Assembly: GCF_014253075.1 (NCBI RefSeq)
Contig: NZ_JACLZJ010000002.1
Span: 1-64,000 of the forward strand
Source of the DNA: Ochrobactrum sp. CM-21-5
GTDB lineage: Bacteria; Pseudomonadota; Alphaproteobacteria; Rhizobiales; Rhizobiaceae
Direction: 5' to 3'
DNA length: 64,000 nt
The position numbers and the translations under genes are program-made. The notes beneath the pieces are model-generated. The model ran no database searches and was not told the DNA's origin. It worked only from the letters and a program-made list of their open reading frames with translations. Positions 8,959 through 25,589 of the stretch are shown here, piece by piece (the first letter of the stretch is position 1; the number at the start of each line of letters is the position of its first letter).

Positions 8959-9699
8959 TTACTTGATTAGCATCCATATCGCCATTGCGACCATCATCAG
9001 ATTCTCGGTCAAAGAGACGAACCCAAGCGGAACATTGCTGTCTCCTCCAACGCAGGCGCATTTCAGCTTTCGATGGTCGAGATAAACCGCTTTGAACACC
9101 GAGATCGCGCCGACGGTACCAATTACAAGTGCGACAGGAATGGCAAGCCAGAGCAAGGCGCCAGCAATCATTAGTATACCTGCCAGCGCTTCTCCAAATG
9201 GATAAAGATACGCATATTGCACCCACCGTCGCGCAAGCAGGTCATATCCAAGAAACATGTTGGAAAAGCTCTCGACATCGCGAAGTTTCAAAGTCGCGAG
9301 AATGCACATCGAAGTAGCGATAAACCATTCCGCCGTATGGATTGTGAGAAGATTGCCGGAGGTCGCCCAAGCAAAGCTCAGTGCTATGAGCGCGGCCATG
9401 ACAAATACGGCAATGACAGGCTTATAGGTTACTGCTTCAGGATCGGGAACAGGCTTCCCAAAATGGCGCCTCAAGTCATCGTAACCGCCAATGCGCACGC
9501 CGCCAATAAAAGTTTGGGGCGTGGTCCTCACGTTATGCTCGGATTTAAATGCATCTGTTTCATCACGCGTTTTCAGCCAGCGATCATCGACAGAGAATCC
9601 TTCGCGTTTCAGCAAATCGAGCGCTTTCAATCCGAAGGGGCAGATGTGGTCATGCATCACCGTTCGATAAAGCGTTGCGTCACGTGGATTTGCATTCAT
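8959..9699 (-). CDS. Glutaredoxin-MauE fusion, redox-associated membrane protein
   Basis: A 246-residue protein. Residues 1-82 are a glutaredoxin-like domain with active-site CPFG, cis-proline segment TTPQTFIGG and GGYDDLRRH. Residues 95-246 are a MauE/DoxX-like membrane domain with four hydrophobic helices and a paired-cysteine loop LKCACVGGD. MauE relatives help disulfide or tryptophylquinone maturation in the periplasm, and fusions with glutaredoxin suggest electron transfer across the membrane. The glutaredoxin part has lost the second cysteine of CPxC, so it would act as a monothiol enzyme. The substrate protein is unknown. Confidence 0.8.
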   Translation of the reverse strand: MNANPRDATLYRTVMHDHICPFGLKALDLLKREGFSVDDRWLKTRDETDAFKSEHNVRTTPQTFIGGVRIGGYDDLRRHFGKPVPDPEAVTYKPVIAVFVMAALIALSFAWATSGNLLTIHTAEWFIATSMCILATLKLRDVESFSNMFLGYDLLARRWVQYAYLYPFGEALAGILMIAGALLWLAIPVALVIGTVGAISVFKAVYLDHRKLKCACVGGDSNVPLGFVSLTENLMMVAMAIWMLIK

Positions 9700-9839: not shown

Positions 9840-12800
9840 CTAAGCCTCTATCGGAATAGAACTCCGATCTTTCATTGAGCTTCCTAAAAAGCCTGCGAGG
9901 GCATCGATAGCCGGCGATTGCATAATGGAAAAATGATTGCAGTCGAACCCAAGTGTAGTCACAGCGCCGTTAGCCAATTTATGCAGGGAATCCAGCGCAT
10001 CTTCGGTCTTTTCGTCATTCTGGGCCCTCAACGCGAGCGCATACCACAACGGTGTTTTCGTCGGCTTGTGTTCGTGCCGGGCAAGAGCAAGCATGTTTGC
10101 CGCATGAATCCGGAAAAGACGGTCCACTGTTGTGGCATCGGCGAACTCACGAAGTTGTTCAAGACCGTGCTGGGAGTCGAATATGGTTTGGAATTCCGGT
10201 TTGGCGATGAGTTGCTGCAGTAGATCGTTATCGTTGCGTTCTGAAAGGGAGGTGATTGCCTGTTGCGCGCGTTTGACATAGTCGCGTCCCGGCAAGGGGC
10301 TATCGATCATCAGTAGACCTCGAATGCCGACACCCTCCGCTTCCCACTGCAGAACCATTTCCTGTGCGACAGAGCCGCCATATGACCAGCCCCCGACGAA
10401 ATCGGGGACCCGACCGGTTTTCTTGATAAGCGTTTCGCGATAAAATGCAGCCAGTTCCGCATGGCTGCGATAATCAACGTGTGAGTTTTCGACAATTCCC
10501 GGATGCCTTATGCCGATGATTTTTGTATCGCCGGGCCAGGCTTCCGCTAATGGTGAATAACAGATCACATCGCCACCAACGGGATGTATCAGCGCCACGA
10601 GTGCACCACTGCCCTCTTTCAGGGTGATTGCGATGTCATCTCGCGCTGCGCTCTCAGGTATGGTTTTCGGCTCGGGTGGTTTGGAAAGTGATTTGGCCGC
10701 GATCGGCCGCTTGTCGGCTCGTTTTCCGGTAGAGTAAAAGACCGCAATGCTGCGCAGAGATGCCCCGTCAGAGAAGGCCCGGATGGGGATTGCCCGACCA
10801 AAATGCCGCTGCAGGCGGGAGCGCATCTCCATGAGTGCCAGGGAGTCGAAACCCTGCGCTACGAGAGCTGTATTTTGATCGATAGTCGACGTTGTTCCAA
10901 TCAGCGGTGAAACAACCTCCAATACTGTTGCAAGAACGGTGTCGCTTTGCGGAGAGCCATGACCTTCAGGATGTTTGATCAATGTGCTTGCGGAAATTAC
11001 TGTTTCGTGCAGCTCAATGTATGAGGTGTCGGATGAAGACGTGCGCGATAATGCGGGAATCTCAAGGTGCTTCTTCTCGAACGCGTATGTCGGCGCTGCA
11101 ACTGGCGGCTGGTGTTCGTAAAGCGCCTGCCAATCGGGAGCATGACCGCAACAGTAAAGGCGGGCGCAGGCGTGGGCAAACCCTTCTTCTTCCGAACTGC
11201 TGTCGTCTATTCCGTCACCAAATGTTGAGATTGCGTGTTGCCAGTCACCGCAAGCGGCTTTTACCAGATTGGTGAGAGCGGTTCCAGGTCCAACCTCCAG
11301 AAAAGTCATGTCGCTGTTGGCAACATGCTTGAGGGCGGCCTCGAAACGGACCGGCCGAACCACCATTTCTGTCCAGTAATCCACGGTCGCCATTTCCACA
11401 CCAGCTGGACGCCCCGTGAGAGTGGATATCAGTTGGATATCCGGGGACTTCATTTTCAACGCGGCCAATTCTTCACGGAAAGGCATCTTTATCGGCGCCA
11501 GAAGCGGAGAATGCGCAGGCGTATCGTAGATTTCGAGCTGAGTGACGCGAATTCCATGGCCGATGAGTGTATCCTTGGCGGCTGCAATGGCTTCCGGTAA
11601 ACCGCTCAAGACGGTCTGTTCAGGACCGTTCATCGCCGCAACGAAAATATTAGGACAGGAAGAAAACATCTGCTCAAGAACTTTGGTTCCGGCAGAAACA
11701 GCTAACATAGCTCCTTTCGGCTTTCTTTCTTCAAAAAGACGACCGCGTGCTTCGACAGCCTTGAGACCATCGTCAAGCGACATCACATCTGCAATGACTG
11801 CCGCCACATGCTCTCCAAGTGAATGACCGATCATGACGTCGGGACGCACGCCCAAATCGATCCATGTGCGTGCCAGAGAGTATAATATAACAAAATGTGC
11901 GAGCTGGCCGGGAACGTGGCGCGCCAAGCTCATATCGTTCTCGAGAATGGATTTTCGTACATCGCTTGCCACGGCGCGTGGCAACCGGGAGAGACAATCA
12001 TCAACGGAAGCACGGAAAATCGGATTGCTTCGATAGAAATTTTCCCCTACGCCCGGACGCCAGGCGCCCTGTCCGGGAAAGAGAAACGCCAGTTTGGTCT
12101 TTTTGGCTGCAGTTCCCCGATACCATCTACCAGAGGGAACGCCATCGCGAAAATCTCTCAATGCTTCACGCATATCGTCTGGCGTCGTGCCGACCAGAGC
12201 CAGGCGCTGATCCCAATGCTGACGGCGAAGGCTGGCTGTGTAGCACAGACCGGACAAATTCGCTTCTGCCCGATCCAGTGTATCCTCGTAAGCGGAAGCG
12301 ATTTCGTTCACTGAAATCTCGGAACGTCCAGAGAGGGTCAGAACCTGTGCTCGTTGGTTATCCTGTACCGGACTTTGCGCGAATGGAGGTGCGGCGAGCA
12401 AGGCATGCGCATTGGTGCCGCTCAGGCCAAATGCACTGACTGCGGCCAGTCCGTCCACAGGGAGGCTCCTGCTGCTTATTGGAACTTCCATCTGCGCTTC
12501 GGCCCACCGGAAACGTGTTGTCGGGGTTTTAAAGCCAGCCTGAGCAGGCACTTGCCTTTGACGCAGCACAAGCACCGCCTTGATCAACCCCGAAATTCCG
12601 GCAGCGGTTTCAAGATGACCGATCTGCGCCTTCAATGCACCCAGCAAGAGAGGGGAATCCCTTGGGACATCCCGCGTATAGACATTGCGCAATGCTGATA
12701 ATTCAATAGGGTCGCCCAACGGCGTACCGGTTCCGTGCGTTTCCACATACGCCACCTGGTCAGGTGTCGCCCCGGCTTGCGCAAGGGCCTGTCGAATGAC

Positions 12801-13697
12801 GGCTTCCTGTGCAGCCCCATTGGGAGCGGTCAGTCCATTGCTTGCGCCATCGTTGTTGATGGATGAGCCGATCAGAAGCGCCTCGATGCGATCCTTGTCG
12901 GCAATGGCGTCCTGGGCGTTTTTTAGGACAACCACCGCGCCGCCTTCACCGCGAATGTAGCCGTCGGCTTTGTTGTCGAAGGTCCGGCATGTATCGGATT
13001 GCGACATGGCTTGCAGCCGTGCAAATGCAATGGTTTCTTCAGGACCCAGAATTAAATTTGTTCCTCCGGCGATAGCCAGATCACAGTCGCCGCACCGAAG
13101 GCTTTGTGCGGCGAGATGGACTGCGACCAATGAGGATGAACAGGTTGAATCAACGAAAATCGCCGGACCTTGTAAACCCAGCTTATAGGCAACGCGGCCA
13201 ATACCGACGGCCCGGTTGGCTCCCAGTTTCCCATATGCCGTAATGCGTTCGGGGTGCCCGGATGCAATCGTCCGGCGGGCATAGTCCACTTCACCTGCCG
13301 TCAAGAACAGAGCCACGCGACGTCCATGCAGTTCGGACGGCAGGATCCCCGCATTTTCCAGCGCGGCCCAGCATAGTTGGAGCATCCAGCGCTGTTGCGG
13401 ATCCATTTCCAGTGCTTCCGCCATCGAAATGCGGAAAAAGTCAGCATCAAAGCTAAAAGGGTCGCGGATGTAGCCAGCGCGGCGCGAGTAGGTCGTGCCG
13501 GGCTTGTCTGGATCGCTCGAGTGATACGGGTCGATATCGAAGCGTTCTTTGGGCGTATCCGTAACAGCCACTTGTGCGGAGTTAATGAAATCCCAGAAAG
13601 CAGTGGGGCTGGTATTATCGCCGGGAAGGTTGAGTGCCATTCCGATGATGGCAACCGGATCTACGGCAGTACGTTTTCGTTGAATACGGGTATCCAT
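9840..13697 (-). CDS. Type I polyketide synthase, KS-AT-ACP-TE
   Basis: A 1285-residue single-module PKS. KS (about 13-440) has the catalytic triad Cys186 (DSTCSSS), His321 (HGTGTPLGDP) and His361 (IGHLETAAG). AT (about 535-830) has FPGQG and the nucleophile Ser626 in GHSLGE. ACP (about 920-990) has the phosphopantetheine site Ser952 in GFDSL. The thioesterase (about 1030-1280) has nucleophile Ser1105 in GWSYGG. No KR, DH or ER domain is present, so one round gives an unreduced beta-keto product that the TE releases. The ATG at 13697 follows GAGGAG. It is the last gene of the cluster, 53 bases after the PPTase gene. Malonyl specificity is likely but not proved from the AT motif. Confidence 0.93.
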   Translation of the reverse strand: MDTRIQRKRTAVDPVAIIGMALNLPGDNTSPTAFWDFINSAQVAVTDTPKERFDIDPYHSSDPDKPGTTYSRRAGYIRDPFSFDADFFRISMAEALEMDPQQRWMLQLCWAALENAGILPSELHGRRVALFLTAGEVDYARRTIASGHPERITAYGKLGANRAVGIGRVAYKLGLQGPAIFVDSTCSSSLVAVHLAAQSLRCGDCDLAIAGGTNLILGPEETIAFARLQAMSQSDTCRTFDNKADGYIRGEGGAVVVLKNAQDAIADKDRIEALLIGSSINNDGASNGLTAPNGAAQEAVIRQALAQAGATPDQVAYVETHGTGTPLGDPIELSALRNVYTRDVPRDSPLLLGALKAQIGHLETAAGISGLIKAVLVLRQRQVPAQAGFKTPTTRFRWAEAQMEVPISSRSLPVDGLAAVSAFGLSGTNAHALLAAPPFAQSPVQDNQRAQVLTLSGRSEISVNEIASAYEDTLDRAEANLSGLCYTASLRRQHWDQRLALVGTTPDDMREALRDFRDGVPSGRWYRGTAAKKTKLAFLFPGQGAWRPGVGENFYRSNPIFRASVDDCLSRLPRAVASDVRKSILENDMSLARHVPGQLAHFVILYSLARTWIDLGVRPDVMIGHSLGEHVAAVIADVMSLDDGLKAVEARGRLFEERKPKGAMLAVSAGTKVLEQMFSSCPNIFVAAMNGPEQTVLSGLPEAIAAAKDTLIGHGIRVTQLEIYDTPAHSPLLAPIKMPFREELAALKMKSPDIQLISTLTGRPAGVEMATVDYWTEMVVRPVRFEAALKHVANSDMTFLEVGPGTALTNLVKAACGDWQHAISTFGDGIDDSSSEEEGFAHACARLYCCGHAPDWQALYEHQPPVAAPTYAFEKKHLEIPALSRTSSSDTSYIELHETVISASTLIKHPEGHGSPQSDTVLATVLEVVSPLIGTTSTIDQNTALVAQGFDSLALMEMRSRLQRHFGRAIPIRAFSDGASLRSIAVFYSTGKRADKRPIAAKSLSKPPEPKTIPESAARDDIAITLKEGSGALVALIHPVGGDVICYSPLAEAWPGDTKIIGIRHPGIVENSHVDYRSHAELAAFYRETLIKKTGRVPDFVGGWSYGGSVAQEMVLQWEAEGVGIRGLLMIDSPLPGRDYVKRAQQAITSLSERNDNDLLQQLIAKPEFQTIFDSQHGLEQLREFADATTVDRLFRIHAANMLALARHEHKPTKTPLWYALALRAQNDEKTEDALDSLHKLANGAVTTLGFDCNHFSIMQSPAIDALAGFLGSSMKDRSSIPIEA

Positions 13698-13750
13698 CAG
13701 ACTGCTCCTCAGTGGCATGACGGGAAGGGGACAGGCAAACAGCCGCGAGA

Positions 13751-14434
13751 TCAGATCTGTGCATCTGCGGCGTTTCCATAATGAATATTCAGTTCTGGCA
13801 CTTGCGCCGCCAGCGCACCTGCATAACCGCGTGCAGTCTTGATGTTGGCGAAGCACCATGGCGAGGCGGCAGCGGAACCGCGTTTCATCGAAACCAGGTG
13901 CGGTGCCTTTCGTGACGGGACGGACACGGTGAAATCGGCCATAGGCAGGGTCAGTCCGGTGCCGATGGCTTTGAGATAGGCTTCTTTGAGTGTCCAGATA
14001 CGGAAGAACGTCCAGCGGCGGTGCATGGCGCGCGCCGCTGCGAGCGCCCGCCGTTCTCCCGGAGAAAAGTAGTGATTTGCGAGAGTTGTTTCATCAACGG
14101 CCCGGACATATTCAATGTCTAGGCCGGGGTCTGATTGCCATGACACGGCGACTGCAGCATAGCCATTGCTGTGGCTGAGACTGAAGCGTGGTCCGTGATC
14201 CATCGCGAGATGTGGTTTGCCGTGTTTCCCAACCCCAAAGACCAGTTTGTACGGCAGCAAGCCGAGCAAACGACCGAGAACGGCGCGAAGACCAGCATGG
14301 GCACGAATGAATGCGGTACGGCGCCGGGGATCCGGGATCAAATTGGCACGTCTGCGTTCATTGGGGTCGAGAACTTCCCAATCCAGTGGTCCGGAACGAT
14401 CAATCGTCCAGCACCAAAGCGTTACATCTGTCAT
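13751..14434 (-). CDS. 4'-phosphopantetheinyl transferase, Sfp type
   Basis: A 227-residue enzyme that moves phosphopantetheine from CoA to the serine of carrier domains. The Sfp/Gsp motifs are present: FSLSHSNGYAAVAVS (84-98), GLDIEYV with metal-binding Asp106 and Glu108, and WTLKEAYLKAIGTGL (147-161). It sits between the FAAL-ACAD-ACP gene and the PKS gene on the same strand, so its natural targets are probably their two ACP domains. The ATG at 14434 is the best start; the upstream extension lacks similarity to the family and would run through a hairpin. Its ribosome-binding site is weak. Confidence 0.93.
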   Translation of the reverse strand: MTDVTLWCWTIDRSGPLDWEVLDPNERRRANLIPDPRRRTAFIRAHAGLRAVLGRLLGLLPYKLVFGVGKHGKPHLAMDHGPRFSLSHSNGYAAVAVSWQSDPGLDIEYVRAVDETTLANHYFSPGERRALAAARAMHRRWTFFRIWTLKEAYLKAIGTGLTLPMADFTVSVPSRKAPHLVSMKRGSAAASPWCFANIKTARGYAGALAAQVPELNIHYGNAADAQI

Positions 14435-14526
14435 CGCCGTACCCGAAATTGTGTTCCAACAGGAAAGATGTGAAGTGGAAGATTCTCGTGGGGCGGCGGT
14501 GCTGGCTCCGCCGCCCATGCTGTCTC

Positions 14527-14559
14527 GTAGAGCAGTTCCATTTTAAGCGGATGCTCTAC
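14527..14559. repeat. Short palindromic hairpin between FAAL fusion and PPTase genes
   Basis: Perfect 8-bp arms GTAGAGCA and TGCTCTAC enclose a 17-base loop in the 171-base spacer. The sequence resembles small dispersed palindromes bounded by AGAGC/GCTCT, like the larger element at 43597. It has no T-tract and so is more likely a repeat or mRNA-processing hairpin than a terminator. Confidence 0.5.
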
Positions 14560-14605
14560 GCCGCCCTTTGATCGCTTCCGCTTGCCAGCAGGAAGGAAAG
14601 AGCGT

Positions 14606-17600
14606 TCATTGCCGTCTGGTTCCAACCGGCCGCTGCTGGCTTCGCTCGGCAATGTAGCCCACCAATGCACGCATGTTCGGATAGACCCACAAGATCGTCT
14701 CATCCAGCTCAAGCGAGAAAGCGCTTTCCAGATGATGGGTCAGCGTAACTGCGCGCAGTGAATCGATCCCTAGATCGGCAAATGAACGGTTGTCCTCGAT
14801 CGAGAAAGATAGATCTTCACTGTGTATCCAGTCGGCGATCACCCGCTGTATTTCTTCGGTCAGCGGCTTTTCCGTATTGCTGGCCATTGCGCGAGTGTTC
14901 AGTTCAATCGCAGCTGTACTCTCGTTTCGGAACTCCGTTTCTGTTGGTGCTTGCACGAAATGGCGGTCTATAGTCCATGTTTCTCCGAAAGGCTGGCTTA
15001 ACGGAACCGCTACCTCGTCGGCACAGGAGCGGGCCGTGCCGAGGATATCAAGCTTTCTTTTCGCGTCCGGAAGGTTCGACGTCTCACGCAGTCGCTCGAT
15101 GCGCGCCAAAGTCACGGCCAGCCGGTCTTCGAGCATTTCCACAGGAACGTCATGGCGTTTGGAGGCTATTCTTGCCGCGGCCACCATGATCGCATCGGCG
15201 ATGACGCGCCCAAACTCCACATTGGCGCCAGCATTTTGGGTCGCGATGATCGAGAACCATTCGGCAGCCACCTGTTTGAGCAGGGAGCTGGTCTGGCGGT
15301 CTCCAAAGTCGTTCTCGATGAAGTTGGTTATGTCATCCATGGATGACTGGAAGGCCGATCCTACATAATCGAGCAGTGTCTCGGTTGGCCCTTCGAATAT
15401 CCGCAATATCCGGGCATCGCGCATCATCTGGGGGATTATATTGGGCTCCATATAGCCGCGCCCGCCCATGATCTGGCATGTGTCATCCAGAACAGCCCAT
15501 AGCCGTTCACTGCCGACGATTTTGGCTATTGCAGCCATTTGAGGGTATAATTTATGCCTACTTTCGGCGAGTGCGGTTGTGTAATCAATGATGACCTCAA
15601 GCGCTCTCGCATCAGCAAGAGCAGAGGAGATTTTGCGCTTTGTTTCGGGTATATGCGCGAGCAGGCCGCCAGCCACATGCCGCTTCGTGCTGTAATTCTC
15701 CATGAAACCGAGTGCGCTTTTTATGCCGCCGACAGCGCCCGCGGCGATGTAGAGGCGCGTTCGCATCATGGCATCCTGCGCAATTGTCATTCCCTTGCCG
15801 ATGTCGCCCAGAACCGCATCGTCGGTTGCCTTGGCATCTGAAAAATAGACGCTGTTCTGGACCATGGAACGCAACCCCATGGTCATGTGCTCCTCTCCCA
15901 CGATGACGCCGGGCTGGTCAGTCGTCACATGGAAGCCGGAGATGCCGATCAGGGATGTATCGTACGCAAGCGCGAAAACATTGATATGTTTGGCCCAGCC
16001 TGCATTGCCGATCCAGGTTTTCTGGCCATTGATTTTCCAATGGTTCCCCGTGCGTTCGGCTTTGGATTGCATCGCCCGGGGATTGGAGCCGGCAGCATCC
16101 TCCGTCAGGGCAAAGGCAATCAGTTCCCGTCCCGCTGCAATTGCCGGTACGATCTTCTCCTGTTGCTCGCGCTTCGCGCCGATCAGCAGCGGCCTCAGTC
16201 CAAGAGAATTGTGGAGCGTGACGAAATTCGCCATCGTCAGGTCTACCGCGCCCACTTGCTCGATGACGCGAAGCGTGTCGCGCAGGGCGAGATCCCTTCC
16301 TCCCAGAGCAGCCGGACAATCCATTCCGAGGAGACCCTGATTGCCGAGGTCGAGAACCAGATGGGGCGCCATCAAACGTCTTGTGTCCATCAGGGTTGTG
16401 TTGATCCGCCGGGCTGCATAATCGCGTAGCCAGGCTCGCATCTCCTCCGAATCCGCTTTGCTGCGAGCGTGATTTCCCTGAGCATGCAGCAACGAACCCG
16501 AAGCCGTATCGTCGCGCTCGATTCCGGGCGGTGCCGTTTCTTCTTGCTTACTAATGGTTGCTGGATGAGCAGACGACGTTTCCTGCCCGCGTCTGGATGC
16601 GATATGTCCCAGATCGTTATCCAGATAGAGCTTGCGGCAGAGAACCCTCTGAATTTTTCCGCTGGAGGTTTTAGGAACCGTTTCGGGTTTGACCAGAACA
16701 ATATCGCTCACCGCAAGTTCGTGTTCCCGGAAGACAGCTTGGCTGATGCGGGACATGATCTCTTTTGTGTCGATGCGAGAGAGCCACGAGCGTTCAATTT
16801 CCTGCACAACGACGATCGATTCAGTTTTGCCGTCATCAATTGCAAAGACTGCGCCTCCGGCAGGCTTCAGCGCTTCGTGCGCTTCCTGAACCGTGGCTTC
16901 TATGTCCTGAGGATAAATGTTGCGGCCACGAATGATCATGACCTCTTTAATCCGACCGGTAACATAGAGTTCGCCATCGATGATGGTTCCAAGATCGCCC
17001 GTTCGTAAGAAAGGCCCTTCGCCGGTCATAGTCATGGCCCCAAACGTGTCGCGCGTGACGTCTGGACGACGCCAATATCCGTTCGCTACACAAGGTCCGG
17101 AAATCCATATTTCACCGACTATGCCGTCATTGCAGATTTTGCGGCTTTCAGGATCGACGATGGTTACTTGTTGCGGAGAACGTGGACGACCGGAACTGAC
17201 GATGGCGCGTGCTCCGGCTCTGCTCGATGGAACAATATGGCCATTATCGAGAGCGTGGGAATCGACAGTCTGTATTTGCGGCAATGACGCTGGATCGGAA
17301 ATCGTTACGATAAGAGTAGCTTCGGCTAGTCCATAAGCGGGGCGGAAGGTCTCGGGCCGGAAGCCATATTCCCTGTAGGTTTTGGTAAAACTTTCGATCA
17401 TCGATGCCCGGATTGGCTCGGCTCCGATCAACGCACATTTCCAACTGGACAGATCCAGCCCTTCACGCTTTTCAGATGGAATCCTCCGAACACAGAGCTC
17501 GTATGCGAAATTCGGAGCCATACTGATCGTCGCTCTATATCGGCTGATCGTTTCGAGCCAGCGACCGGGGTTCTGGATCAAGGAAACTGGAGGCAGCAGA

Positions 17601-18316
17601 ACGCACAGCGCTCCATCATAGATCGATTGCAGGATATTACCGATCAGACCAAGGTCATGATAAGGTGGAAGCCAGCAAACGATAACCGCATCGGAATTAA
17701 ATCCGCACATGGGGCCAGCAATATTACTGTGAGCATGAAGATTACCGAAAGTAACGATTGTTCCTTTCGGGTTTCCGGTTGAGCCTGACGTATACTGCAG
17801 GAATGCGGGTGTGTCGGCTGAAGGGCGTTCCCATTGAAACTGGGAAGGATCTCCGACCAGATCCTCGGATGCCAGCAAGGGTAAAGCGGTCAGTTCGGGA
17901 CTATCGGCAAACCAGCCGGCAAGCTTCGGAATCGAAGCTGCTTCGGTCAGTATGCAGGCTGCATCGGAGTCCTGAACAATCGCGATCAGGCGTTCCCAAG
18001 TGGACCGTCCCGGCTTTGCAAGATGGCATGGCAAAGGTGTGACGCCGGCGCGAAGGCAGGCAAAAAACGAAATCACAAAACCGGCGCCGGGTTCGAAGAG
18101 CATAAGCGCACGGGAACCGGAGAGCCCTTTCTCACGCAATGCGGCAGCGTAACGGTCAACCTGGTTATGAAGCTCGCCATAGGTAAGCTTCGTCTTTTCT
18201 CCTCCGTCCGTTCCAACAATGATTAAGGCATTTTTTTGCGGATGGATTTTGGCTCTTTGAGCGAGAATGTCGGAAAAGCAGCGGTGTTGAGGGTCGATGT
18301 AATCATCTATGATCAT
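14606..18316 (-). CDS. Fatty-acyl-AMP ligase / acyl-CoA dehydrogenase / ACP fusion
   Basis: A 1236-residue three-domain protein. Residues 1-565 are a fatty-acyl-AMP ligase: A3 motif TSGSTGNPKG (176-185), the FAAL-type LPPYHDLGL (216-224), YGLAEAT (328-334) and the A10 lysine Lys554 in KTSSGK. After a polar linker (about 570-640), residues 645-1120 are an acyl-CoA dehydrogenase with ALTEDAAGSNP, MGGRGYMEP and candidate catalytic Glu975 in IFEGPTE. Residues about 1150-1225 are an ACP with Ser1186 in GIDSL. The likely job is to activate a fatty acid, load it on its own ACP and desaturate it there before transfer to the PKS. The ATG at 18316 has GAGAGG 5 bases upstream. Confidence 0.92.
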   Translation of the reverse strand: MIIDDYIDPQHRCFSDILAQRAKIHPQKNALIIVGTDGGEKTKLTYGELHNQVDRYAAALREKGLSGSRALMLFEPGAGFVISFFACLRAGVTPLPCHLAKPGRSTWERLIAIVQDSDAACILTEAASIPKLAGWFADSPELTALPLLASEDLVGDPSQFQWERPSADTPAFLQYTSGSTGNPKGTIVTFGNLHAHSNIAGPMCGFNSDAVIVCWLPPYHDLGLIGNILQSIYDGALCVLLPPVSLIQNPGRWLETISRYRATISMAPNFAYELCVRRIPSEKREGLDLSSWKCALIGAEPIRASMIESFTKTYREYGFRPETFRPAYGLAEATLIVTISDPASLPQIQTVDSHALDNGHIVPSSRAGARAIVSSGRPRSPQQVTIVDPESRKICNDGIVGEIWISGPCVANGYWRRPDVTRDTFGAMTMTGEGPFLRTGDLGTIIDGELYVTGRIKEVMIIRGRNIYPQDIEATVQEAHEALKPAGGAVFAIDDGKTESIVVVQEIERSWLSRIDTKEIMSRISQAVFREHELAVSDIVLVKPETVPKTSSGKIQRVLCRKLYLDNDLGHIASRRGQETSSAHPATISKQEETAPPGIERDDTASGSLLHAQGNHARSKADSEEMRAWLRDYAARRINTTLMDTRRLMAPHLVLDLGNQGLLGMDCPAALGGRDLALRDTLRVIEQVGAVDLTMANFVTLHNSLGLRPLLIGAKREQQEKIVPAIAAGRELIAFALTEDAAGSNPRAMQSKAERTGNHWKINGQKTWIGNAGWAKHINVFALAYDTSLIGISGFHVTTDQPGVIVGEEHMTMGLRSMVQNSVYFSDAKATDDAVLGDIGKGMTIAQDAMMRTRLYIAAGAVGGIKSALGFMENYSTKRHVAGGLLAHIPETKRKISSALADARALEVIIDYTTALAESRHKLYPQMAAIAKIVGSERLWAVLDDTCQIMGGRGYMEPNIIPQMMRDARILRIFEGPTETLLDYVGSAFQSSMDDITNFIENDFGDRQTSSLLKQVAAEWFSIIATQNAGANVEFGRVIADAIMVAAARIASKRHDVPVEMLEDRLAVTLARIERLRETSNLPDAKRKLDILGTARSCADEVAVPLSQPFGETWTIDRHFVQAPTETEFRNESTAAIELNTRAMASNTEKPLTEEIQRVIADWIHSEDLSFSIEDNRSFADLGIDSLRAVTLTHHLESAFSLELDETILWVYPNMRALVGYIAERSQQRPVGTRRQ

Positions 18317-18380
18317 GATAGCCTCTCTTTGCGCGTAAGGGTCCGGCTCCGAAACGACACCGGTAGAGTTTTCGGACGGG

Positions 18381-19655
18381 TTACAAACGGCCTGTTGCCT
18401 GGTAAGTGCGGAGCAGCCAATTAGAACAAACGAGACCGAGGGCGTGGTTTTCGCCACCTTCCAACATGGCGGTTTGTATGTCGCGCAACAGCTTTTCCAC
18501 GGGGAATTCTCGTCCGATGCCGTTTCCGCCGAATATCTGTATTGCTTCGGACGTTACATCCAGCGCGGTCAAAGTTGCTGTGATCTTGGCTGATCCGGAC
18601 GCAAGAACATGCGGACCGTTAGCCGAGAAATTATATGCGGCAGCCCTGCGAACCATCGCGCGAGCAGCTTCGATCTTTCGCCACATTTCGAACAGTCGCC
18701 ACCTCACATGCTGATGATCGGCAAGTACGCCGCCGCCCTGACGGCGCTCGTGGGCATATTTAAGAGCATGTTCGAATGCAGCTCTTGCCACGCCAATGGA
18801 AATGGAGCCAATCGACATCACGCCAGATGTCAGAGAACTGAAGAAAGATGCGTAGTAGTCCTCTTTAGGGCGCAACACATATTTTAGTGGTACGTGTACA
18901 TCGTCGAAAACGATATCGCCGGTGGGCAGTGGACGTTGACCCAGCTTGTCACTGGGTATGCCTTGTGTAATGCCCGGTAAATCAAGGGGCACGAGCATGA
19001 CAGTACCGAACACACCGCCGTCTGGGCGCCTGTAACCGTTTCCATAATCCGCAGGACTGTGAACCAGCGCGCATTCGGCGATTGGAGCGCAGGCAACCCA
19101 TTGCGAGGTCCGACCCGACAATATGACCTCGCTTGATGTAACCCGCGCCTTGAGACTTCCTATCGTCTGGTTTGCACCCGAAACAACTTCGAACGCTTCA
19201 TAGTCCAGCGCGTCCGACCCGCGATCGGGCTGTGTCACTGCCCAGCAGCCGCGAAGCTTTCCAAATTTCTCGATCAGTTCCGGGTTGCCGGACGATTTTA
19301 CCGCGAAGGCAGGCATCTTGGTCATGAACGAGGTCAGGGCCAGTCCAAAATCGCCATATCCCAGTTCTTCCAGGATGATCGGCAGTATGCGTCCGATTTT
19401 TTGCGGAGGCAGATCCGCCAACGTGGAAGGCCCAATCCCCAATTCGCTAAAGTGATCGAGATATTCCCAGAGCGGAGACTGCGAGGAAATGGTGTCCTGA
19501 GCAGCAATTTTGTCCAGCCTTTCCGCAGTGGGGCGCATGACCTCAAGTGCAAACCGTCTTACTTTGGCTTGTATTTCTTTCTCATCAGTTGCCAGATCGC
19601 CATCCAGCCCGCTGAACTCCAGGTAAGGGGCCCTAACTTCAGTCACATTAAACAT
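18381..19655 (-). CDS. Acyl-CoA dehydrogenase family protein
   Basis: A 424-residue flavoenzyme of the acyl-CoA dehydrogenase fold. The N-terminal helical domain is followed by the substrate-binding WAVTQPDRGSDAL segment (about 148-160), and the C-terminal domain contains QIFGGNGIGREFPVEKLLRD and AMLEGGENHALG, whose Glu is at the usual catalytic-base position. It is 65 bases upstream of the FAAL-ACAD-ACP gene and co-directional, so it likely acts on the same carrier-bound or CoA-bound acyl chain as a second desaturation. It could instead form a heteromer with the fused dehydrogenase. The flavin and substrate cannot be tested here. Confidence 0.88.
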   Translation of the reverse strand: MFNVTEVRAPYLEFSGLDGDLATDEKEIQAKVRRFALEVMRPTAERLDKIAAQDTISSQSPLWEYLDHFSELGIGPSTLADLPPQKIGRILPIILEELGYGDFGLALTSFMTKMPAFAVKSSGNPELIEKFGKLRGCWAVTQPDRGSDALDYEAFEVVSGANQTIGSLKARVTSSEVILSGRTSQWVACAPIAECALVHSPADYGNGYRRPDGGVFGTVMLVPLDLPGITQGIPSDKLGQRPLPTGDIVFDDVHVPLKYVLRPKEDYYASFFSSLTSGVMSIGSISIGVARAAFEHALKYAHERRQGGGVLADHQHVRWRLFEMWRKIEAARAMVRRAAAYNFSANGPHVLASGSAKITATLTALDVTSEAIQIFGGNGIGREFPVEKLLRDIQTAMLEGGENHALGLVCSNWLLRTYQATGRL

Positions 19656-19734
19656 GGCTCTTAACTCTTGTTAGATGCTGATTGTCGTTGAAGTACATCA
19701 CGGCGCATCGCCTGGCAGGCTCTCAGCCGTCGGC

Positions 19735-19768
19735 GAAAAATGTTTAACGCGGATTGCCCGCGTTAAAC
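19735..19768 (-). terminator. Rho-independent terminator downstream of the SDR gene
   Basis: A perfect 11-bp stem, GTTTAACGCGG with CCGCGTTAAAC, and a 5-base loop. On the minus strand it is followed by CATTTTTCG, giving a T-tract in the direction of the SDR gene. It therefore separates the SDR transcript, at least partly, from the downstream dehydrogenase-FAAL-PKS genes. Confidence 0.8.
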
Positions 19769-19882
19769 TGGACCGTCAGCAGATATCTACGATGAAGGCA
19801 GCCGCTTTCACGCGTTGAAACGCTGATGGAGGAGTTTGAAATATTGAAGATTGGGTGGTGTTTGCCTTGAACGTGCTGTCGA

Positions 19883-20632
19883 TCAGGCTGCGGTAAGTCC
19901 GCCATCAATCGCTAGGGTCGTCCCGGTAATGAACGACGCCGCTCCGCTTGCCAGAAAGAGAGCCGCTTCCGCCATTTCATCGGCTTCTCCGAAGCGCCCC
20001 ATGGGATGCATAGCCAGCAAAGCATCTTTTATGGGCTGCGGCGCGCGATCCAGCAATTCGCTATGGGTTCCGCCAGGGCAAATCGTGTTCACGCGGATAT
20101 TTTGGGTCGCAAATTCGAGCGCGGCGCATTTGCCCAGACCGATCAGCCCGTGCTTGGCTGCTTCGTAAGCCGCCAGTCCTGGCATGCCGACCAGTCCGAG
20201 CACGGAAGAGGTGTTGACGATTGCGCCGCCTCCGCTCTTCAGCATTTCAGGGATTTCATACTTCATGCTGAGGAAGACGCCCTTGAGATTGATACCCATC
20301 AGGCGATCCCACTCTTCTTCCTCGTGTTCAACTATTGTTTTGCCGAGTACTTCGATGCCGGCATTGTTGAATGCAATATCAAGCCGGCCAAACGCCTCTA
20401 CTGTCCGGGCAACGGCATTGCGGCAATCTTCGGCCCTGGAAACATCGGTTTGCACAAAAATCGCTTCGCCGCCGCGTTCTCTGACTTCCTGAACAATTTT
20501 CTCGCCCTGATCAGCACGCCTTGCGGCGACAACGACTTTGGCGCCCTCCTTGGCGAACAGCCGGACTGCCGCCTCTCCAATCCCCGAAGTTCCACCAGTA
20601 ATCAACGCAACTTTATTCATCAGTCTTGGCAT
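19883..20632 (-). CDS. Short-chain dehydrogenase/reductase (SDR, FabG-like)
   Basis: A 249-residue classical SDR. The cofactor motif is TGGTSGIG (12-19), followed by NNAG (89-92) and catalytic Ser143, Tyr156 and Lys160 (YEAAK). The residues after the second strand (VAARRA) favour NADP(H) by analogy with FabG. It is the first gene on the minus strand before the acyl-CoA dehydrogenase, with a terminator hairpin in the 227-base spacer. It could supply the ketoreduction missing from the PKS, but it may equally belong to unrelated metabolism. The ATG at 20632 follows AAGGGGGA. Confidence 0.88.
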   Translation of the reverse strand: MPRLMNKVALITGGTSGIGEAAVRLFAKEGAKVVVAARRADQGEKIVQEVRERGGEAIFVQTDVSRAEDCRNAVARTVEAFGRLDIAFNNAGIEVLGKTIVEHEEEEWDRLMGINLKGVFLSMKYEIPEMLKSGGGAIVNTSSVLGLVGMPGLAAYEAAKHGLIGLGKCAALEFATQNIRVNTICPGGTHSELLDRAPQPIKDALLAMHPMGRFGEADEMAEAALFLASGAASFITGTTLAIDGGLTAA

Positions 20633-21275: not shown

Positions 21276-22082
21276 GTGAAGACGGACCATAACGGTTGCA
21301 TTCAGGATAGAGGCGCCGGATGTATCCGACGGTATCGGGAGTCAAAATTGGAGCTTGGGGACGTGACGTTGCTTTCAGTACATGGAATTGCAGTTCCTTT
21401 GGGATCGAACGAAGTTTCAGAAGAAATCTGGAATGCGCTCATCAGCGGCAGTTATGAGGCAAAAGAAGCCCGTTGGATTTTTCGCGCCATAAAGGCTAAT
21501 GACCGTGTACTGGAACTCGGTGCAGGCATCGGAATCATTACGTCGCTTATCGCTGGTATTTCCGGGGTGCGTGTGTGGTCATTCGAAGCGAACCCATCGA
21601 CGGTTGCTCTTGCAAAGCGCGTTATTGACGCCAACCGTCTGGACAATGTGGTCCTGTCTCAGGGGATACTTTCTGCCGGGCAACCGCAGATGTTCAAATT
21701 TTATGTTCGCAAGGACCTCTGGATGTCTTCGATGAACAGGGAGCAGGGACCTTACGAGCAAGAAATATCGCTTGCTTCAGCGGACATCGACGACTTTATC
21801 GGACGCCATAATATCAATGCCTTGGTTATGGACATTGAAGGTGCAGAACGAGAACTCCTTCAAAATGCGGAACTTCCGGGCATTGAACGAATTTTCCTTG
21901 AACTGCATGACCATCTTTATGGATTGCCAGGTATCCGCGAGATTACGCAGGTATTGGCGGCGAAAGGGTTTGCCTACGATCCTCGAGGATCACAGGGACC
22001 CTGCGTCCTTTTCTCGAAAGATGACGGTCCACGGGAGTACGATGCAGAAGTTTTTCAATCCGAACATCGTGTGCCCTCCTGA
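21276..22082 (+). CDS. FkbM family methyltransferase
   Basis: A 268-residue SAM-dependent methyltransferase. Motif I is VLELGAGIGIITSL (about 78-91), with an acidic FEAN motif about 20 residues later and the FkbM-type VMDIEGAERELL block (about 186-197). FkbM proteins O-methylate polyketides, glycans and lipids. It is divergent from the SDR/PKS locus across an AT-rich promoter region, so it may tailor the cluster product, although many FkbM genes act on surface sugars. The start is uncertain: the GTG at 21276 has no clear ribosome-binding site, and the first 20 residues may be untranslated. Confidence 0.8.
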   Translation: MKTDHNGCIQDRGAGCIRRYRESKLELGDVTLLSVHGIAVPLGSNEVSEEIWNALISGSYEAKEARWIFRAIKANDRVLELGAGIGIITSLIAGISGVRVWSFEANPSTVALAKRVIDANRLDNVVLSQGILSAGQPQMFKFYVRKDLWMSSMNREQGPYEQEISLASADIDDFIGRHNINALVMDIEGAERELLQNAELPGIERIFLELHDHLYGLPGIREITQVLAAKGFAYDPRGSQGPCVLFSKDDGPREYDAEVFQSEHRVPS

Positions 22083-22323: not shown

Positions 22324-22568
22324 TAAGGCGCTTGTTTCAAGCGCGCGGATAGGGAGGAGCATGGCAAATGAAAATGTGCATGGTCTCTTCGAAAGCGCGT
22401 TATATTCTAGAGTATGAACGGGTGCGAACCGAAAGCGAGGTCGTGTGACCACGGTGTAACGAGGCACCGTTACGCATAAGAGGGGAGGCCCGCTCACTGC
22501 AAGCATATATTGAAGGAGGCAGTCGCTAACGACAATAATTCCGCAGGTTGGAGGAGGCCCCGGAACAT

Positions 22569-23639
22569 ATGCTCGAATTGCGAAATATCTCGAAGAAGGT
22601 GGGCGGAGACCATCACATTCATCCGACAAGTTTGAGCTTGCCGCATGGGAGCCTGAATGTTCTGCTCGGGCCGACCCTGTCCGGCAAGACCTCGCTTATG
22701 CGCCTCATGGCGGGCCTCGACAAGCCGAGCGAGGGTTCGATCCTGTTCGACGGACGGGATGTCACTGGCGCTCCCGTTCAGAAGCGCAACGTCGCGATGG
22801 TCTATCAGCAGTTCATCAATTATCCCACTTTAAGTGTTTATGAGAATATTGCCTCGCCGATGCGCATCGCCGGCAAAACTTCGAAGGAAGTAGACCGCGA
22901 AGTCAAGAAGGCGGCGGACCTCCTCAAACTCACGCCCTATCTCAGCCGCACACCGCTGGAACTTTCCGGTGGGCAGCAGCAGCGCACGGCAATTGCAAGG
23001 GCCATCGTGAAGCAGGCCCAATTGGTGCTGCTGGATGAACCTCTGGCCAATCTCGATTATAAGCTGCGCGAAGAACTACGCGAGGAATTACCGCGAATCT
23101 TCGCGGAATCCGGTGCTATTTTCGTTTATGCAACAACCGAACCGTCGGAAGCCCTGCTTCTCGGCGGTAACACGGCTACACTGTCGAAAGGCCGTATTAC
23201 GCAGTTCGGGCGTACAATCGATGTATACCGTCATCCGGTTGACCTCATTACAGCGCGAACCTTTGCCGACCCGCCGCTCAACACAGCGCGGATGGTCAAG
23301 GCGGGCGACCAGTTCCTGCGTGCCGACCAGCCTGCCATTGCGGTACCCCGCCAGCTGTCCGGTGTAGGCGACGGGCCGTTGACGGTGGCCTTTCAGCCGC
23401 ATCAGCTGCTGCTCCAGCCGACCGCCAATGCAACAATACCGATCCGTGCGCGCACGCTGATTTCGGAGATTGCCGGCTCGGAAAGCTTTATTCATCTCGA
23501 TTATGAAGGCGAACGCTGGGTGATGCTCGCGCATGGTGTCTGCGACATCGAGCCGGACCACGAGATCAAGGTGTTTCTCGATACACGGCATCTGATGGCA
23601 TTCGATGAAGCCGGCCGTGCTGTTGGCATTGTGGCATAG
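22569..23639 (+). CDS. glpS: Glycerol ABC transporter ATPase 1
   Basis: A 356-residue MalK/UgpC-type nucleotide-binding protein, first gene of the glycerol uptake operon. Walker A is GPTLSGKTS (Lys40), the Q-loop is VYQQ (Gln80), the signature LSGGQ is intact (132-136) and Walker B is LVLLDEPLANLD (Asp156, Glu157). The switch-loop histidine is missing: Thr190 stands where the paired ATPase has VTHDQ. A C-terminal TOBE-type regulatory domain covers about 235-350. The ATG at 22569 follows GGAGGAGG. It is 9 bases from glpT. Gene name by similarity to the rhizobial glpSTPQUV system. Confidence 0.9.
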   Translation: MLELRNISKKVGGDHHIHPTSLSLPHGSLNVLLGPTLSGKTSLMRLMAGLDKPSEGSILFDGRDVTGAPVQKRNVAMVYQQFINYPTLSVYENIASPMRIAGKTSKEVDREVKKAADLLKLTPYLSRTPLELSGGQQQRTAIARAIVKQAQLVLLDEPLANLDYKLREELREELPRIFAESGAIFVYATTEPSEALLLGGNTATLSKGRITQFGRTIDVYRHPVDLITARTFADPPLNTARMVKAGDQFLRADQPAIAVPRQLSGVGDGPLTVAFQPHQLLLQPTANATIPIRARTLISEIAGSESFIHLDYEGERWVMLAHGVCDIEPDHEIKVFLDTRHLMAFDEAGRAVGIVA

Positions 23640-23648
23640 GGGGCGGCG

Positions 23649-24737
23649 ATGGCGCGCATAACCCTGGATAATATCCGTCATGCTTATAGCGCAAAGGCTC
23701 AAGCTGCGGGCGATTATGCACTCAAGCAGGTAAATTTCGAATGGGATGACAGCGGAGCCTATGCATTGCTTGGCCCCTCTGGGTGCGGCAAGACGACATT
23801 GCTCAATATCATCTCCGGTCTGCTCCAGCCGACCCAAGGGCGTATTCTCTTCGATGGTCAGGACGTGACCGGCCTCGCGACGGAGGATCGCAACATCGCG
23901 CAGGTGTTTCAGTTTCCTGTCGTTTACGACACAATGACGGTGTTCGACAATCTTGCATTTCCTCTACGCAACCGTCGTATGCCGGAGCCGGAAGTGGAGC
24001 AGCGCGTCACGAATATTCTCGAAATGACCGATCTTGCGGGTATCGCCAAACGGCGTGCGCGGGGTCTGACTGCTGATCAGAAGCAGAAAATTTCTCTGGG
24101 TCGGGGGCTAGTGCGCGCCGGTGTCAACGCGATTCTTTTCGACGAGCCTCTGACAGTGATCGATCCGCACATGAAGTGGATATTACGCTCGCAATTAAAA
24201 CGGTTGCATCGTCAGTCGGGTTTCACAATGGTTTATGTCACCCACGACCAGACCGAAGCGCTCACTTTCGCCGATAAGGTGGTCGTGATGCACGACGGTC
24301 AGATTGTGCAGATCGGTACACCTGTCGAATTGTTCGAGCGGCCAGGCCATACATTCGTCGGCTATTTCATTGGTTCGCCTGGCATGAATCTGATGCCCGC
24401 CCGGCTCGAAGGGCGTATGGCACGGGTAGGTACGCAGTCTATCCCGCTTCCCGGCCTACCGAAGGTAGGCGATGACAAGCATATCGAACTGGGTATCCGT
24501 CCCGAGTTCGTTAAACTTGCCCGCGATGGCTTGCCTGTTCGCATCGACAAGATCGAAGACGTTGGACGTTATCGCATCGTGCGAGCAGGCTTTGAGGGGT
24601 ACCGGTTGGCTGCCGTGGTGACAGAGGACGACGAGATTCCCGCAGACCCGTGTGTGACCTTCGATCCGAAAGCAATAGGTATTTTTGCAGATTCCTGGCG
24701 CGTGGACATGGAGGATTGTCCATGGACAAAAGCCTGA
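23649..24737 (+). CDS. glpT: Glycerol ABC transporter ATPase 2
   Basis: A 362-residue ABC ATPase, partner of GlpS. Walker A is GPSGCGKTT (Lys48), Walker B is AILFDEPLTVID (Asp165, Glu166) and the switch histidine is His199 in VTHDQTEA. The signature is degenerate, LTADQ (140-144) instead of LSGGQ. A TOBE-type domain lies at about 255-355. With GlpS it should form a heterodimer with one good and one poor ATP site. The 3' end overlaps the permease gene glpP by 16 bases, indicating translational coupling. It is not related to the glycerol-3-phosphate antiporter of enterobacteria also called GlpT. Confidence 0.9.
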   Translation: MARITLDNIRHAYSAKAQAAGDYALKQVNFEWDDSGAYALLGPSGCGKTTLLNIISGLLQPTQGRILFDGQDVTGLATEDRNIAQVFQFPVVYDTMTVFDNLAFPLRNRRMPEPEVEQRVTNILEMTDLAGIAKRRARGLTADQKQKISLGRGLVRAGVNAILFDEPLTVIDPHMKWILRSQLKRLHRQSGFTMVYVTHDQTEALTFADKVVVMHDGQIVQIGTPVELFERPGHTFVGYFIGSPGMNLMPARLEGRMARVGTQSIPLPGLPKVGDDKHIELGIRPEFVKLARDGLPVRIDKIEDVGRYRIVRAGFEGYRLAAVVTEDDEIPADPCVTFDPKAIGIFADSWRVDMEDCPWTKA

Positions 24738-25588
24738 ATAACAAAGCATGGTTCATGGTCTTGCCAGTCTTGGTGCTGGTTGCCTTCTCGGCTGCCATAC
24801 CGCTGATGACCGTCGTGAACTATTCGGTTCAGGATACGTTCGGCAACAATCAGTTTTTCTGGGCCGGAACAGACTGGTTCGAGCAGATTCTTCATTCCAG
24901 ACGCTTCTGGAATGCGCTTGGGCGCAATCTCATCTTCTCGTTCATCATTCTCGCTATACAGGTACCGCTTGGTATTTTCATTGCACTGAACATGCCGAAG
25001 AAGGGTTTCTGGGTGCCGGTCTGCCTGGTCACCATGGCGCTTCCGCTTCTCATCCCATGGAATGTGGTCGGCACTATCTGGCAGGTTTTCGGACGCAGTG
25101 ACATTGGCCTGCTCGGTTATTATGCCAACCGGCTCGGGCTGGACTACAACTATGTCAACGATCCATTCGATGCGTGGATTACGGTTATCATCATGGATGT
25201 CTGGCACTGGACCAGCCTCGTCGTGTTGCTGTGCTATGCCAGCCTCGTGTCCATTCCGGATGCCTATTATCAGGCGGCCCGAATAGATGGCGCCTCACGC
25301 TTTTCGGTGTTCCGTTACATACAGCTGCCCAAGATGAAGCGTGTTCTTCTGATCGCCGTACTGCTGCGTTTCATGGACAGTTTCATGATTTATACGGAAC
25401 CTTTTGTCGTAACGGGTGGCGGACCGGGCAATTCAACGACCTTCCTGTCCATCGACTTGGTAAAAATGGCACTCGGACAGTTCGACCTCGGTCCCGCCGC
25501 CGCCATGTCGCTCATCTACTTCCTGATTATCCTGCTGCTTTCGTGGGTGTTCTACACAGTCATGACCAGCCACGATACGGAGGCTTGA
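24722..25588 (+). CDS. glpP: Glycerol ABC transporter permease 1
   Basis: A 288-residue inner-membrane permease of the MalF/UgpA type with six hydrophobic segments. The EAA-type coupling motif is visible as AYYQAARIDGASRFSVFRYI (about 180-199). It pairs with the GlpQ permease to form the channel through which the binding protein delivers glycerol. The ATG at 24722 has GGAGG 7 bases before it and overlaps the glpT end. A GGPGNSTTFLS loop near residue 236 is usual in this family. Confidence 0.9.
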   Translation: MDKSLNNKAWFMVLPVLVLVAFSAAIPLMTVVNYSVQDTFGNNQFFWAGTDWFEQILHSRRFWNALGRNLIFSFIILAIQVPLGIFIALNMPKKGFWVPVCLVTMALPLLIPWNVVGTIWQVFGRSDIGLLGYYANRLGLDYNYVNDPFDAWITVIIMDVWHWTSLVVLLCYASLVSIPDAYYQAARIDGASRFSVFRYIQLPKMKRVLLIAVLLRFMDSFMIYTEPFVVTGGGPGNSTTFLSIDLVKMALGQFDLGPAAAMSLIYFLIILLLSWVFYTVMTSHDTEA

Positions 25589-25589
25589 G

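What the first reader, a model, noticed from the sequence alone, without database searches (positions are those of the whole stretch)
9840..20632. Compact FAAL/ACAD/PKS locus without an NRPS: a possible undescribed modified-fatty-acid pathway
On one strand lie an SDR, an acyl-CoA dehydrogenase, a FAAL-ACAD-ACP fusion, an Sfp-type PPTase and a KS-AT-ACP-TE polyketide synthase. All catalytic residues I could locate are present. FAAL-loaded systems usually feed lipopeptide NRPS lines; here there is none, and the PKS has its own thioesterase. The predicted route is acyl-AMP, acyl-ACP, 2-enoyl-ACP, one malonyl extension to a 3-oxo-4-enoyl chain, optional reduction by the SDR, then release as a free acid or a decarboxylated enone. 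I know of no characterised Brucellaceae product of this kind.
Basis: partly seen in the sequence, partly recalled or inferred. Interest (0 to 1): 0.85.

Follow-up and report, generated by a model that had tools for sequence, protein, structure and literature searches.

The report
Fatty-acid-primed one-module polyketide synthase locus
A rare, apparently imported set of genes looks able to activate a fatty acid, put double bonds into it, extend it by one building block and release it as a small modified lipid, using known parts in a combination that I found nowhere else.

Summary
Confirmed. On the minus strand, 9840-20632, lie intact genes for an SDR, an ACAD-family protein (ACAD1), a FAAL-ACAD-ACP fusion, a phosphopantetheinyl transferase and a KS-AT-ACP-TE PKS, motifs in place. 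The last four form a tight run; a terminator-like hairpin separates the SDR.

FAAL-primed PKSs without NRPS are known. FAAL-ACAD fusions, 36-39% identical, recur in cyanobacteria and betaproteobacteria. [quoted passage not shown] Both ATs carry TP[AG]HS where malonyl ATs carry HAFHS, so a C2-substituted unit is at least as likely as malonyl; yet this genome has no CCR over the cut-off. Two ACADs beside a FAAL recall taromycin and malacidin, so the starter may be 2-enoyl or 2,4-dienoyl.

Likely product: a 2-(alkyl)-3-oxo- or 3-hydroxy-4-enoic (or 4,6-dienoic) acid, or its enone. Untested. A new variant of a known kind.

The parts
19883..20632 (-). SDR, classical type; TGGTSGIG and YEAAK motifs; best NCBIfam model PRK06172, just under cut-off (323 of 336 bits)
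   Evidence: 57% identical to the SDR beside the B. arboris PKS, against 51% for other SDRs of the genus
19742..19768 (-). terminator-like hairpin, 12-pair stem then T-rich tail, between SDR and ACAD1
   Evidence: 18 such sites found against 16.6 expected in shuffles, so only its stem (the longest of the 18) and its intergenic place are suggestive
18381..19655 (-). ACAD1, stand-alone acyl-CoA-dehydrogenase-family protein; Glu of LEGGE aligns with the family's catalytic base
   Evidence: C-terminal domain models over cut-off, middle domain just under, N-terminal domain not matched
14606..18316 (-). FAAL-ACAD-ACP fusion (ORF opens at 18457; likely start 18316)
16601..18262 (-). FAAL domain (AMP-binding plus C-terminal subdomain)
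   Evidence: colinear with the four best solved relatives, whose alignments were printed
15359..16453 (-). ACAD domain of the fusion, Glu in FEGPTE, GGRGY motif
14651..14854 (-). ACP domain of the fusion, Ser in GIDSL
13751..14434 (-). 4'-phosphopantetheinyl transferase, Sfp-like (ORF opens at 14518)
   Evidence: Pfam PF01648 over cut-off; NCBIfam HetI model under cut-off; motifs
9840..13697 (-). PKS KS-AT-ACP-TE (ORF opens at 13859; likely start 13697 or 13718)
12531..13661 (-). KS, Cys in TCSSS, His in ETHGTGT and KAQIGH
11253..12086 (-). AT, Ser in GHSLGE, Arg in ARGRLF, specificity motif YDTPAHS
11508..11522 (-). AT motif TPAHS in the place of HAFHS/YASHS
10743..10928 (-). ACP of the PKS, Ser in GFDSL
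9882..10595 (-). TE, Ser in GWSYGG, Asp in LMIDS, His in FDCNH

Best explanation
A probably acquired pathway for one small modified lipid. The FAAL domain turns a free fatty acid into acyl-AMP and loads it on the ACP of the fusion. The fused ACAD, perhaps followed by ACAD1, oxidises the carrier-bound chain to 2-enoyl or 2,4-dienoyl. The KS of the PKS takes this chain and condenses it once with a malonyl-type unit chosen by the AT, at least as likely C2-substituted as plain malonyl. The TE releases a 2-(alkyl)-3-oxo-4-enoic (or 4,6-dienoic) acid, which may lose CO2 to an enone; the SDR may reduce the ketone to a 3-hydroxy acid. The local PPTase arms both ACPs. Shown: gene content, domain order, motifs, shared strand, rarity. 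Inferred from relatives: the desaturation, the substituted extender. Inferred only: a single round, release as acid, the SDR step.
For: Domains and motifs. The 14 solved sequences that match the adenylating domain at E<=1e-60 include seven named FadD23/28/32 or fatty acyl-adenylate ligase; the other seven are labelled polyketide synthase (3), acyl-CoA synthase (3) or saframycin synthetase (1) and are FAALs as far as I recall; the four printed alignments are colinear. One continuous match through FAAL and ACAD in seven other loci (L015, L016, L017, L020/L131, L021, L022, L023, best 25 rows seen); in Gloeocapsa the fusion gene is followed directly by type I PKS genes. Precedent for FAAL+ACP+ACADs: one ACAD goes with one double bond, two with delta-2,4 (PMC9113097, passages). 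Close full-length PKS relative at 48%: KS 62%, AT 51%, TE 39%, beside an SDR, a CCR (579 bits, cut-off 378.55) and a KAS III. In 41 AT matches in my loci, 23 have HAFHS and only B. arboris has TP[AG]HS. HAFH as malonyl and YASH as methylmalonyl motif: PMC6164871, passages.
Against: No product, expression or mutant data. The host genome has no CCR over the curated cut-off (best 128 bits), so the source of a substituted unit is open; methylmalonyl or plain malonyl remain possible, and GHSLGE also fits malonyl ATs (recalled). 17 of the 41 ATs have neither HAFHS nor TP[AG]HS but 13 other forms, so departure from HAFHS alone proves little. The best NCBIfam model for ACAD1 is an acryloyl-CoA reductase, under cut-off, so the direction of its reaction is open; in the 4 of 55 plasmid records whose neighbours I read its relatives sit in acyl-CoA-degradation-like operons, so it may act on CoA esters. 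The SDR is of a common type and may not belong. A PKS without KR, DH or ER can also work iteratively.
Confidence: 0.5

Rival explanations
1. The PKS works iteratively: two or more malonyl-type units are added to the enoyl starter and the TE (or spontaneous cyclisation) releases an alkenyl alpha-pyrone or similar ring.
For: KS-AT-ACP-TE without reductive domains; iterative non-reducing type I PKSs are known; fungal iterative PKSs are among the solved relatives of KS-AT.
Against: The best solved relatives of the KS, after an unnamed 'putative polyketide synthase' (7zma, mode not known to me), are modular enzymes such as CurL, PikA1 and EryA; the fungal ones rank lower. An SDR beside the PKS in both cases would be of no use to a pyrone.
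Confidence: 0.2
2. Mycolate-like logic: the AT loads a long 2-carboxyacyl unit and the KS joins two chains, the SDR reducing the product, as FadD32-Pks13 and the mycolate reductase do.
For: Same functions FAAL, KS-AT-ACP-TE, SDR; Pks13 model scores 572 bits in pieces; AT motif is not of the malonyl type; close relative next to a CCR.
Against: Pks13 score far under its cut-off (2100); no N-terminal ACP; Pks13 ranks 28th to 30th of 34 solved relatives of the KS; no carboxylase gene among the five genes.
Confidence: 0.1
3. The fusion feeds another system, such as a lipopeptide or a lipid siderophore with 2-enoyl chains made elsewhere in the genome, and the PKS is a separate thing.
For: In other hosts FAAL-ACAD sits beside NRPS parts (Gloeocapsa, Gloeothece, Trinickia). 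Lipid siderophores (ochrobactins) are known from an Ochrobactrum (PMC6836290, passages; that their chains are 2-enoyl is recalled).
Against: Fusion and PKS stand in one tight run with the PPTase between. The only IucA/IucC genes found in the genome, three in a row, lie among PALP, ornithine-cyclodeaminase-like, HpcH-type and decarboxylase genes, the make-up that I recall for staphyloferrin B loci, whose product carries no fatty acid. No condensation domain in the 27 window ORFs scanned; the rest of the genome was not searched for one.
Confidence: 0.12
4. The genes are silent or a relic of transfer, with no product in this host.
For: PKS full length in 1 of 35 genus genomes; no excess of promoter-like sites in the region (4 found, 11.7 expected).
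Against: All frames open and motifs kept; GC about that of the neighbours on either side; consensus promoter scans mean little here.
Confidence: 0.08

Closest known systems
FAAL + ACP + ACAD starter modules of taromycin, malacidin, friulimicin, laspartomycin
   Same: FAAL, ACP and one or two ACAD-family enzymes prepare an unsaturated acyl starter (PMC9113097, passages)
   Different: there they are separate proteins and feed an NRPS; here FAAL, one ACAD and ACP are fused and the neighbour is a PKS with TE
Fused FAAL-ACAD(-ACP) proteins of Gloeocapsa PCC 7428, Gloeothece PCC 7822, Burkholderia stagnalis, Trinickia fusca, Noviherbaspirillum massiliense, Crocosphaera MO_167.B6 and genome G871
   Same: same order of FAAL and ACAD, 36-39% identity
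   Different: other partners: modular PKS then NRPS with siderophore receptors, condensation proteins, KAS III pair, oxoamine-synthase-like enzymes; none of these loci gave a match to the whole PKS
PKS of Burkholderia arboris MEC_B345 pla_2 (L134 16142-20023)
   Same: whole PKS 48% identical, same four domains, same kind of AT motif, SDR two genes upstream
   Different: CCR and KAS III as neighbours; no FAAL, ACAD or PPTase among the 18 ORFs scanned there
FadD32-Pks13 (mycolic acid condensation)
   Same: FAAL-primed single PKS with KS, AT, ACP, TE; an SDR reduces the product (the reductase is recalled)
   Different: Pks13 has a further N-terminal ACP (recalled); KS here is not closest to Pks13; no AccD4-type gene in the locus; the ACADs have no counterpart
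Olefin synthase (OLS) of cyanobacteria
   Same: FAAL-ACP feeding one PKS extension and release (PMC11837247, section 3.3)
   Different: OLS has KR and sulfotransferase-TE; here no KR in the PKS and no sulfotransferase

Membership tests
Fatty acyl-AMP ligase (FAAL) | closest relatives are FAALs, colinear along the domain | tested here: met
   7 of 14 solved sequences at E<=1e-60 bear FAAL/FadD23/28/32 names, the other 7 carry other labels (recalled as FAALs); four printed alignments without large gaps
Fatty acyl-AMP ligase (FAAL) | NCBIfam FAAL models over curated cut-off | tested here: not met
   best FAAL models 350-416 bits under cut-offs of 600-1100; these are narrow models
Fatty acyl-AMP ligase (FAAL) | forms acyl-AMP and acyl-ACP, not acyl-CoA | not testable with these tools
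   needs an enzyme assay
Type I PKS module with own release (KS-AT-ACP-TE) | four domains in order with catalytic residues | tested here: met
Pks13 (mycolate PKS) | N-terminal ACP before KS (recalled) | tested here: not met
   one ACP only, after AT
Pks13 (mycolate PKS) | NCBIfam NF040607 over cut-off; KS nearest to Pks13 | tested here: not met
   572 of 2100 bits; Pks13 KS 302 bits against 494 for 7zma and 389 for CurL
Malonyl-specific AT | HAFHS motif | tested here: not met
   TPAHS; 23 of 41 ATs in my loci have HAFHS
Acyl-CoA-dehydrogenase superfamily (fused ACAD and ACAD1) | catalytic Glu and family domains | tested here: met
   FEGPTE and LEGGE; Pfam N/M/C over cut-off for the fused one, C-terminal models only for ACAD1
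Delta-2,4 starter system of the taromycin type | two ACADs orthologous to Tar5 and Tar6 | not tested
   Tar sequences not at hand
FAAL-primed NRPS (lipopeptide) | condensation domain in the cluster | tested here: not met
   none in the 27 window ORFs scanned (7, 10, 10); rest of genome not searched

The most novel reading that the evidence does not exclude
A portable PKS-plus-SDR condensing head with exchangeable supply modules: in B. arboris a CCR and KAS III make the extender, here a FAAL-ACAD-ACP and a second ACAD make a polyunsaturated starter. The product would be an alpha-branched, beta-keto or beta-hydroxy, 4,6-dienoic lipid, a small mycolate-like acid class of which I know no description in Gram-negative bacteria (recalled; not searched as such).
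Probability: 0.2. Interest if true: 0.72.

Novelty: new variant of a known kind. Interest (0 to 1): 0.48.

Why it matters
It joins two things usually seen apart: a fused FAAL-desaturating starter protein and a one-module PKS whose AT is not of the malonyl type. Because the pathway is so short (five proteins), the question of where ACAD-family enzymes act in FAAL pathways, for which PMC9113097 (2021) says no mechanistic studies had been reported, could be settled here: FAAL, ACAD and ACP are one polypeptide, which argues for dehydrogenation on the carrier protein.

Tried and rejected
Lipid-siderophore link: I searched the genome for IucA/IucC; the three genes found lie in a staphyloferrin-B-like locus, so this is not the main reading. 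Pks13 membership: rejected on the N-terminal ACP and the KS ranking. Glutaredoxin-MauE gene 8959-9699 as part of the cluster: found in 5 of 35 genus genomes, host included, and not syntenic in the three relatives whose surroundings I compared, so left out. SDR as a common gene of the genus: 4 of 35 genomes, host included, at E<=1e-70, the others at 51%. Borders: the sugar ABC genes on the right are 84-97% conserved in four relatives, but none of the left-flank genes was found in the roughly 20 kb stretches fetched around them; no tRNA in the window, no repeat pair bracketing the genes, so borders are undefined. Rfam gave nothing at gathering level. E. coli counterpart by DNA (KS-linker-AT part only): one 70-base match to irp1 in 1 of 5426 genomes. 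Phylum sample for the PKS: 2 of 398, the other (G653) over KS-AT-ACP at 37% in a 2719-aa frame. AFC-BC11: outline and abstract only seen. PMC10536100, passages: the gene clusters named there for one Brucella sp. strain include no such PKS. Paper searches for such a locus, listings only (lists were capped in 26, 83 and 112): none of the listed titles or abstracts describes it; most subscription papers are not held. Structure prediction was not run.
Full report
What is there. The minus strand from 20632 down to 9840 carries, in order, an SDR, ACAD1, a FAAL-ACAD-ACP fusion, a PPTase and a KS-AT-ACP-TE PKS. Likely true starts are 18316 for the fusion, 14434 for the PPTase and 13697 or 13718 for the PKS (chosen from in-frame ATGs, not from data). 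With these, ACAD1, fusion, PPTase and PKS follow each other with gaps of about 30 to 170 bases. The SDR ends 227 bases before ACAD1 begins, and a 12-pair hairpin with a T-rich tail stands between them. That scan found 18 hairpins against 16.6 expected in shuffles, so the hairpin is only a hint.

Motifs. KS TCSSS, ETHGTGT, KAQIGH; AT GHSLGE and ARGRLF; PKS ACP GFDSL; TE GWSYGG, LMIDS, FDCNH; FAAL YTSGSTGNPKG, RTGDLG, SSGKIQR; fused ACAD FEGPTE; fusion ACP GIDSL; ACAD1 LEGGE; SDR TGGTSGIG and YEAAK; PPTase FSLSH and KEAYLK. That these are catalytic is established knowledge. The adenylating domain aligns end to end with the four best solved relatives. ACAD1 is divergent: only its C-terminal Pfam models are over cut-off, and its best NCBIfam model is an acryloyl-CoA reductase, under cut-off.

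Host and distribution. The window is the start of contig 12 of a 4.28 Mb genome in 28 contigs. The fusion was found in 1 of 199 family genomes. In the order sample 3 of 397 had a match, the two others over the FAAL only; in the phylum sample 3 of 398, one other FAAL only and one, G871, with FAAL+ACAD. The PKS passed in 2 of 35 genus genomes, the other over KS-AT only, and in 2 of 398 of the phylum sample, the other over KS-AT-ACP only. GC of the five genes is 0.54-0.58 and GC3 0.55-0.59, between or near the values of the left (0.47-0.53; 0.45-0.57) and right neighbours (0.44-0.58; 0.49-0.67). The genes are rare and probably acquired, and nothing in their composition says that this was recent.

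Relatives of the fusion. In plasmid records 195 matched at E<=1e-50, 1 of them over at least 80% of the query. Continuous matches through FAAL and ACAD came from Gloeocapsa, Gloeothece, B. stagnalis, G871, Noviherbaspirillum, Crocosphaera and Trinickia. Their partners differ: type I PKS then NRPS with siderophore receptors in Gloeocapsa; a P450, ACP, condensation protein and another ACAD in Gloeothece; two KAS III in B. stagnalis; a desaturase, KS-AT, and an aminotransferase-condensation protein in Trinickia; an oxoamine-synthase-like enzyme in Noviherbaspirillum and G871. The fusion is thus a general starter device, in three of these seven near NRPS parts. FAALs as such often work without NRPS: mycolate, PDIM and olefin pathways use FAAL and PKS (PMC11837247: sections 3.1-3.3 and 4.1 and passages seen; PMC9431677: passages).

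Relatives of the PKS. In plasmid records 528 matched at E<=1e-100 and 8 covered at least 80% of the query. Six of these 8 are among the 15 rows that I saw: B. arboris at 48% and five Sinorhizobium records, annotated as NRPS/PKS or adenylation proteins, at 29-31%. In B. arboris the PKS follows an SDR (57% identical to ours) and a CCR (579 bits, cut-off 378.55; 64% to an annotated ccrA of Ruegeria) and precedes a KAS III. No FAAL, ACAD or PPTase is among the 18 ORFs that I scanned there. Identity by domain is KS 62%, AT 51%, TE 39%.

Extender. CCRs supply ethylmalonyl-CoA and other alkylmalonyl-CoAs for PKSs (PMC6164871, passages). HAFH marks malonyl and YASH methylmalonyl ATs (same source). The window AT has YDTPAHS and B. 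arboris YGTPGHS. Of 41 AT matches in my loci, the window's own left out, 23 have HAFHS, 1 (B. arboris) TPGHS, and 17 show 13 other forms, among them YASHT twice. A small residue in place of Phe is what I would expect of a pocket for a branch; I recall TAGHS for ethylmalonyl ATs, and that the 5yda chain, aligned with PAAAHS at this place, is SpnD-AT, which takes long alkylmalonyl units (its breadth: PMC6164871, passage). Against this, the host has no CCR over cut-off. So a substituted unit is likely in B. arboris and possible here.

Starter. FAAL clusters with one ACAD give one double bond and those with two give delta-2,4 (taromycin, malacidin); for friulimicin the role of the ACAD was shown by gene disruption; the review says that no mechanistic studies were reported (PMC9113097, passages). 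Two ACADs here make a 2,4-dienoyl starter a fair guess. But ACAD1's relatives sit in degradation-type operons in the 4 of 55 plasmid records whose neighbourhood I read.

Mechanism offered. Fatty acid, acyl-AMP, acyl-ACP, 2-enoyl (or 2,4-dienoyl)-ACP, one condensation on the PKS, optional reduction by the SDR, release by the TE. I give this frame 0.50. Iterative use of the PKS, a mycolate-like joining of two chains, supply of another system, and silence are the rivals, as listed.

Known or new. Each part is known; no paper listed by my searches describes the set, and the PKS-SDR pair with two different supply modules is, as far as I could see, new, on two cases only. It does not belong to the Pks13 family (no N-terminal ACP, KS not closest), though it may work in a similar way. 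I class it as a new variant of a known kind.

Noticed in passing
L021 5480-13885 and L131 6651-14630: Same three genes in two genomes: a GGDEF-EAL protein, an oxoamine-synthase-like Aminotran_1_2 enzyme and FAAL-ACAD(-ACP). A c-di-GMP enzyme beside what may be an acyl-ACP-fed aminoketone or sphingoid-base maker.
   Followed up: no
L143 9923-19467 (G000:C23): Host genome holds a staphyloferrin-B-like locus (likeness recalled): PALP, ornithine-cyclodeaminase-like, three IucA/IucC synthetases, HpcH-type and decarboxylase genes in a row.
   Followed up: partly
window 8959-9699: Glutaredoxin domain fused to a MauE-like membrane domain, just downstream of the PKS on the same strand; in 5 of 35 genus genomes, host included; in G205 interrupted by an in-frame TGA.
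   Followed up: partly
L134 14002-21497: B. arboris SDR-CCR-PKS-KAS III set: a short pathway that probably makes its own ethylmalonyl-type unit; none of the six papers listed by one search is about it by title or abstract.
   Followed up: partly
window 22548-28607: Sugar-type ABC transporter genes 84-97% identical in four relatives, but without the window's left-flank genes in the stretches fetched, so the locus lies at a synteny break.
   Followed up: no
window 21276-22082: FkbM-family methyltransferase gene upstream of the SDR, on the other strand; similar DNA (66-70% identity) occurs in many genus genomes, so probably not part of the cluster.
   Followed up: no
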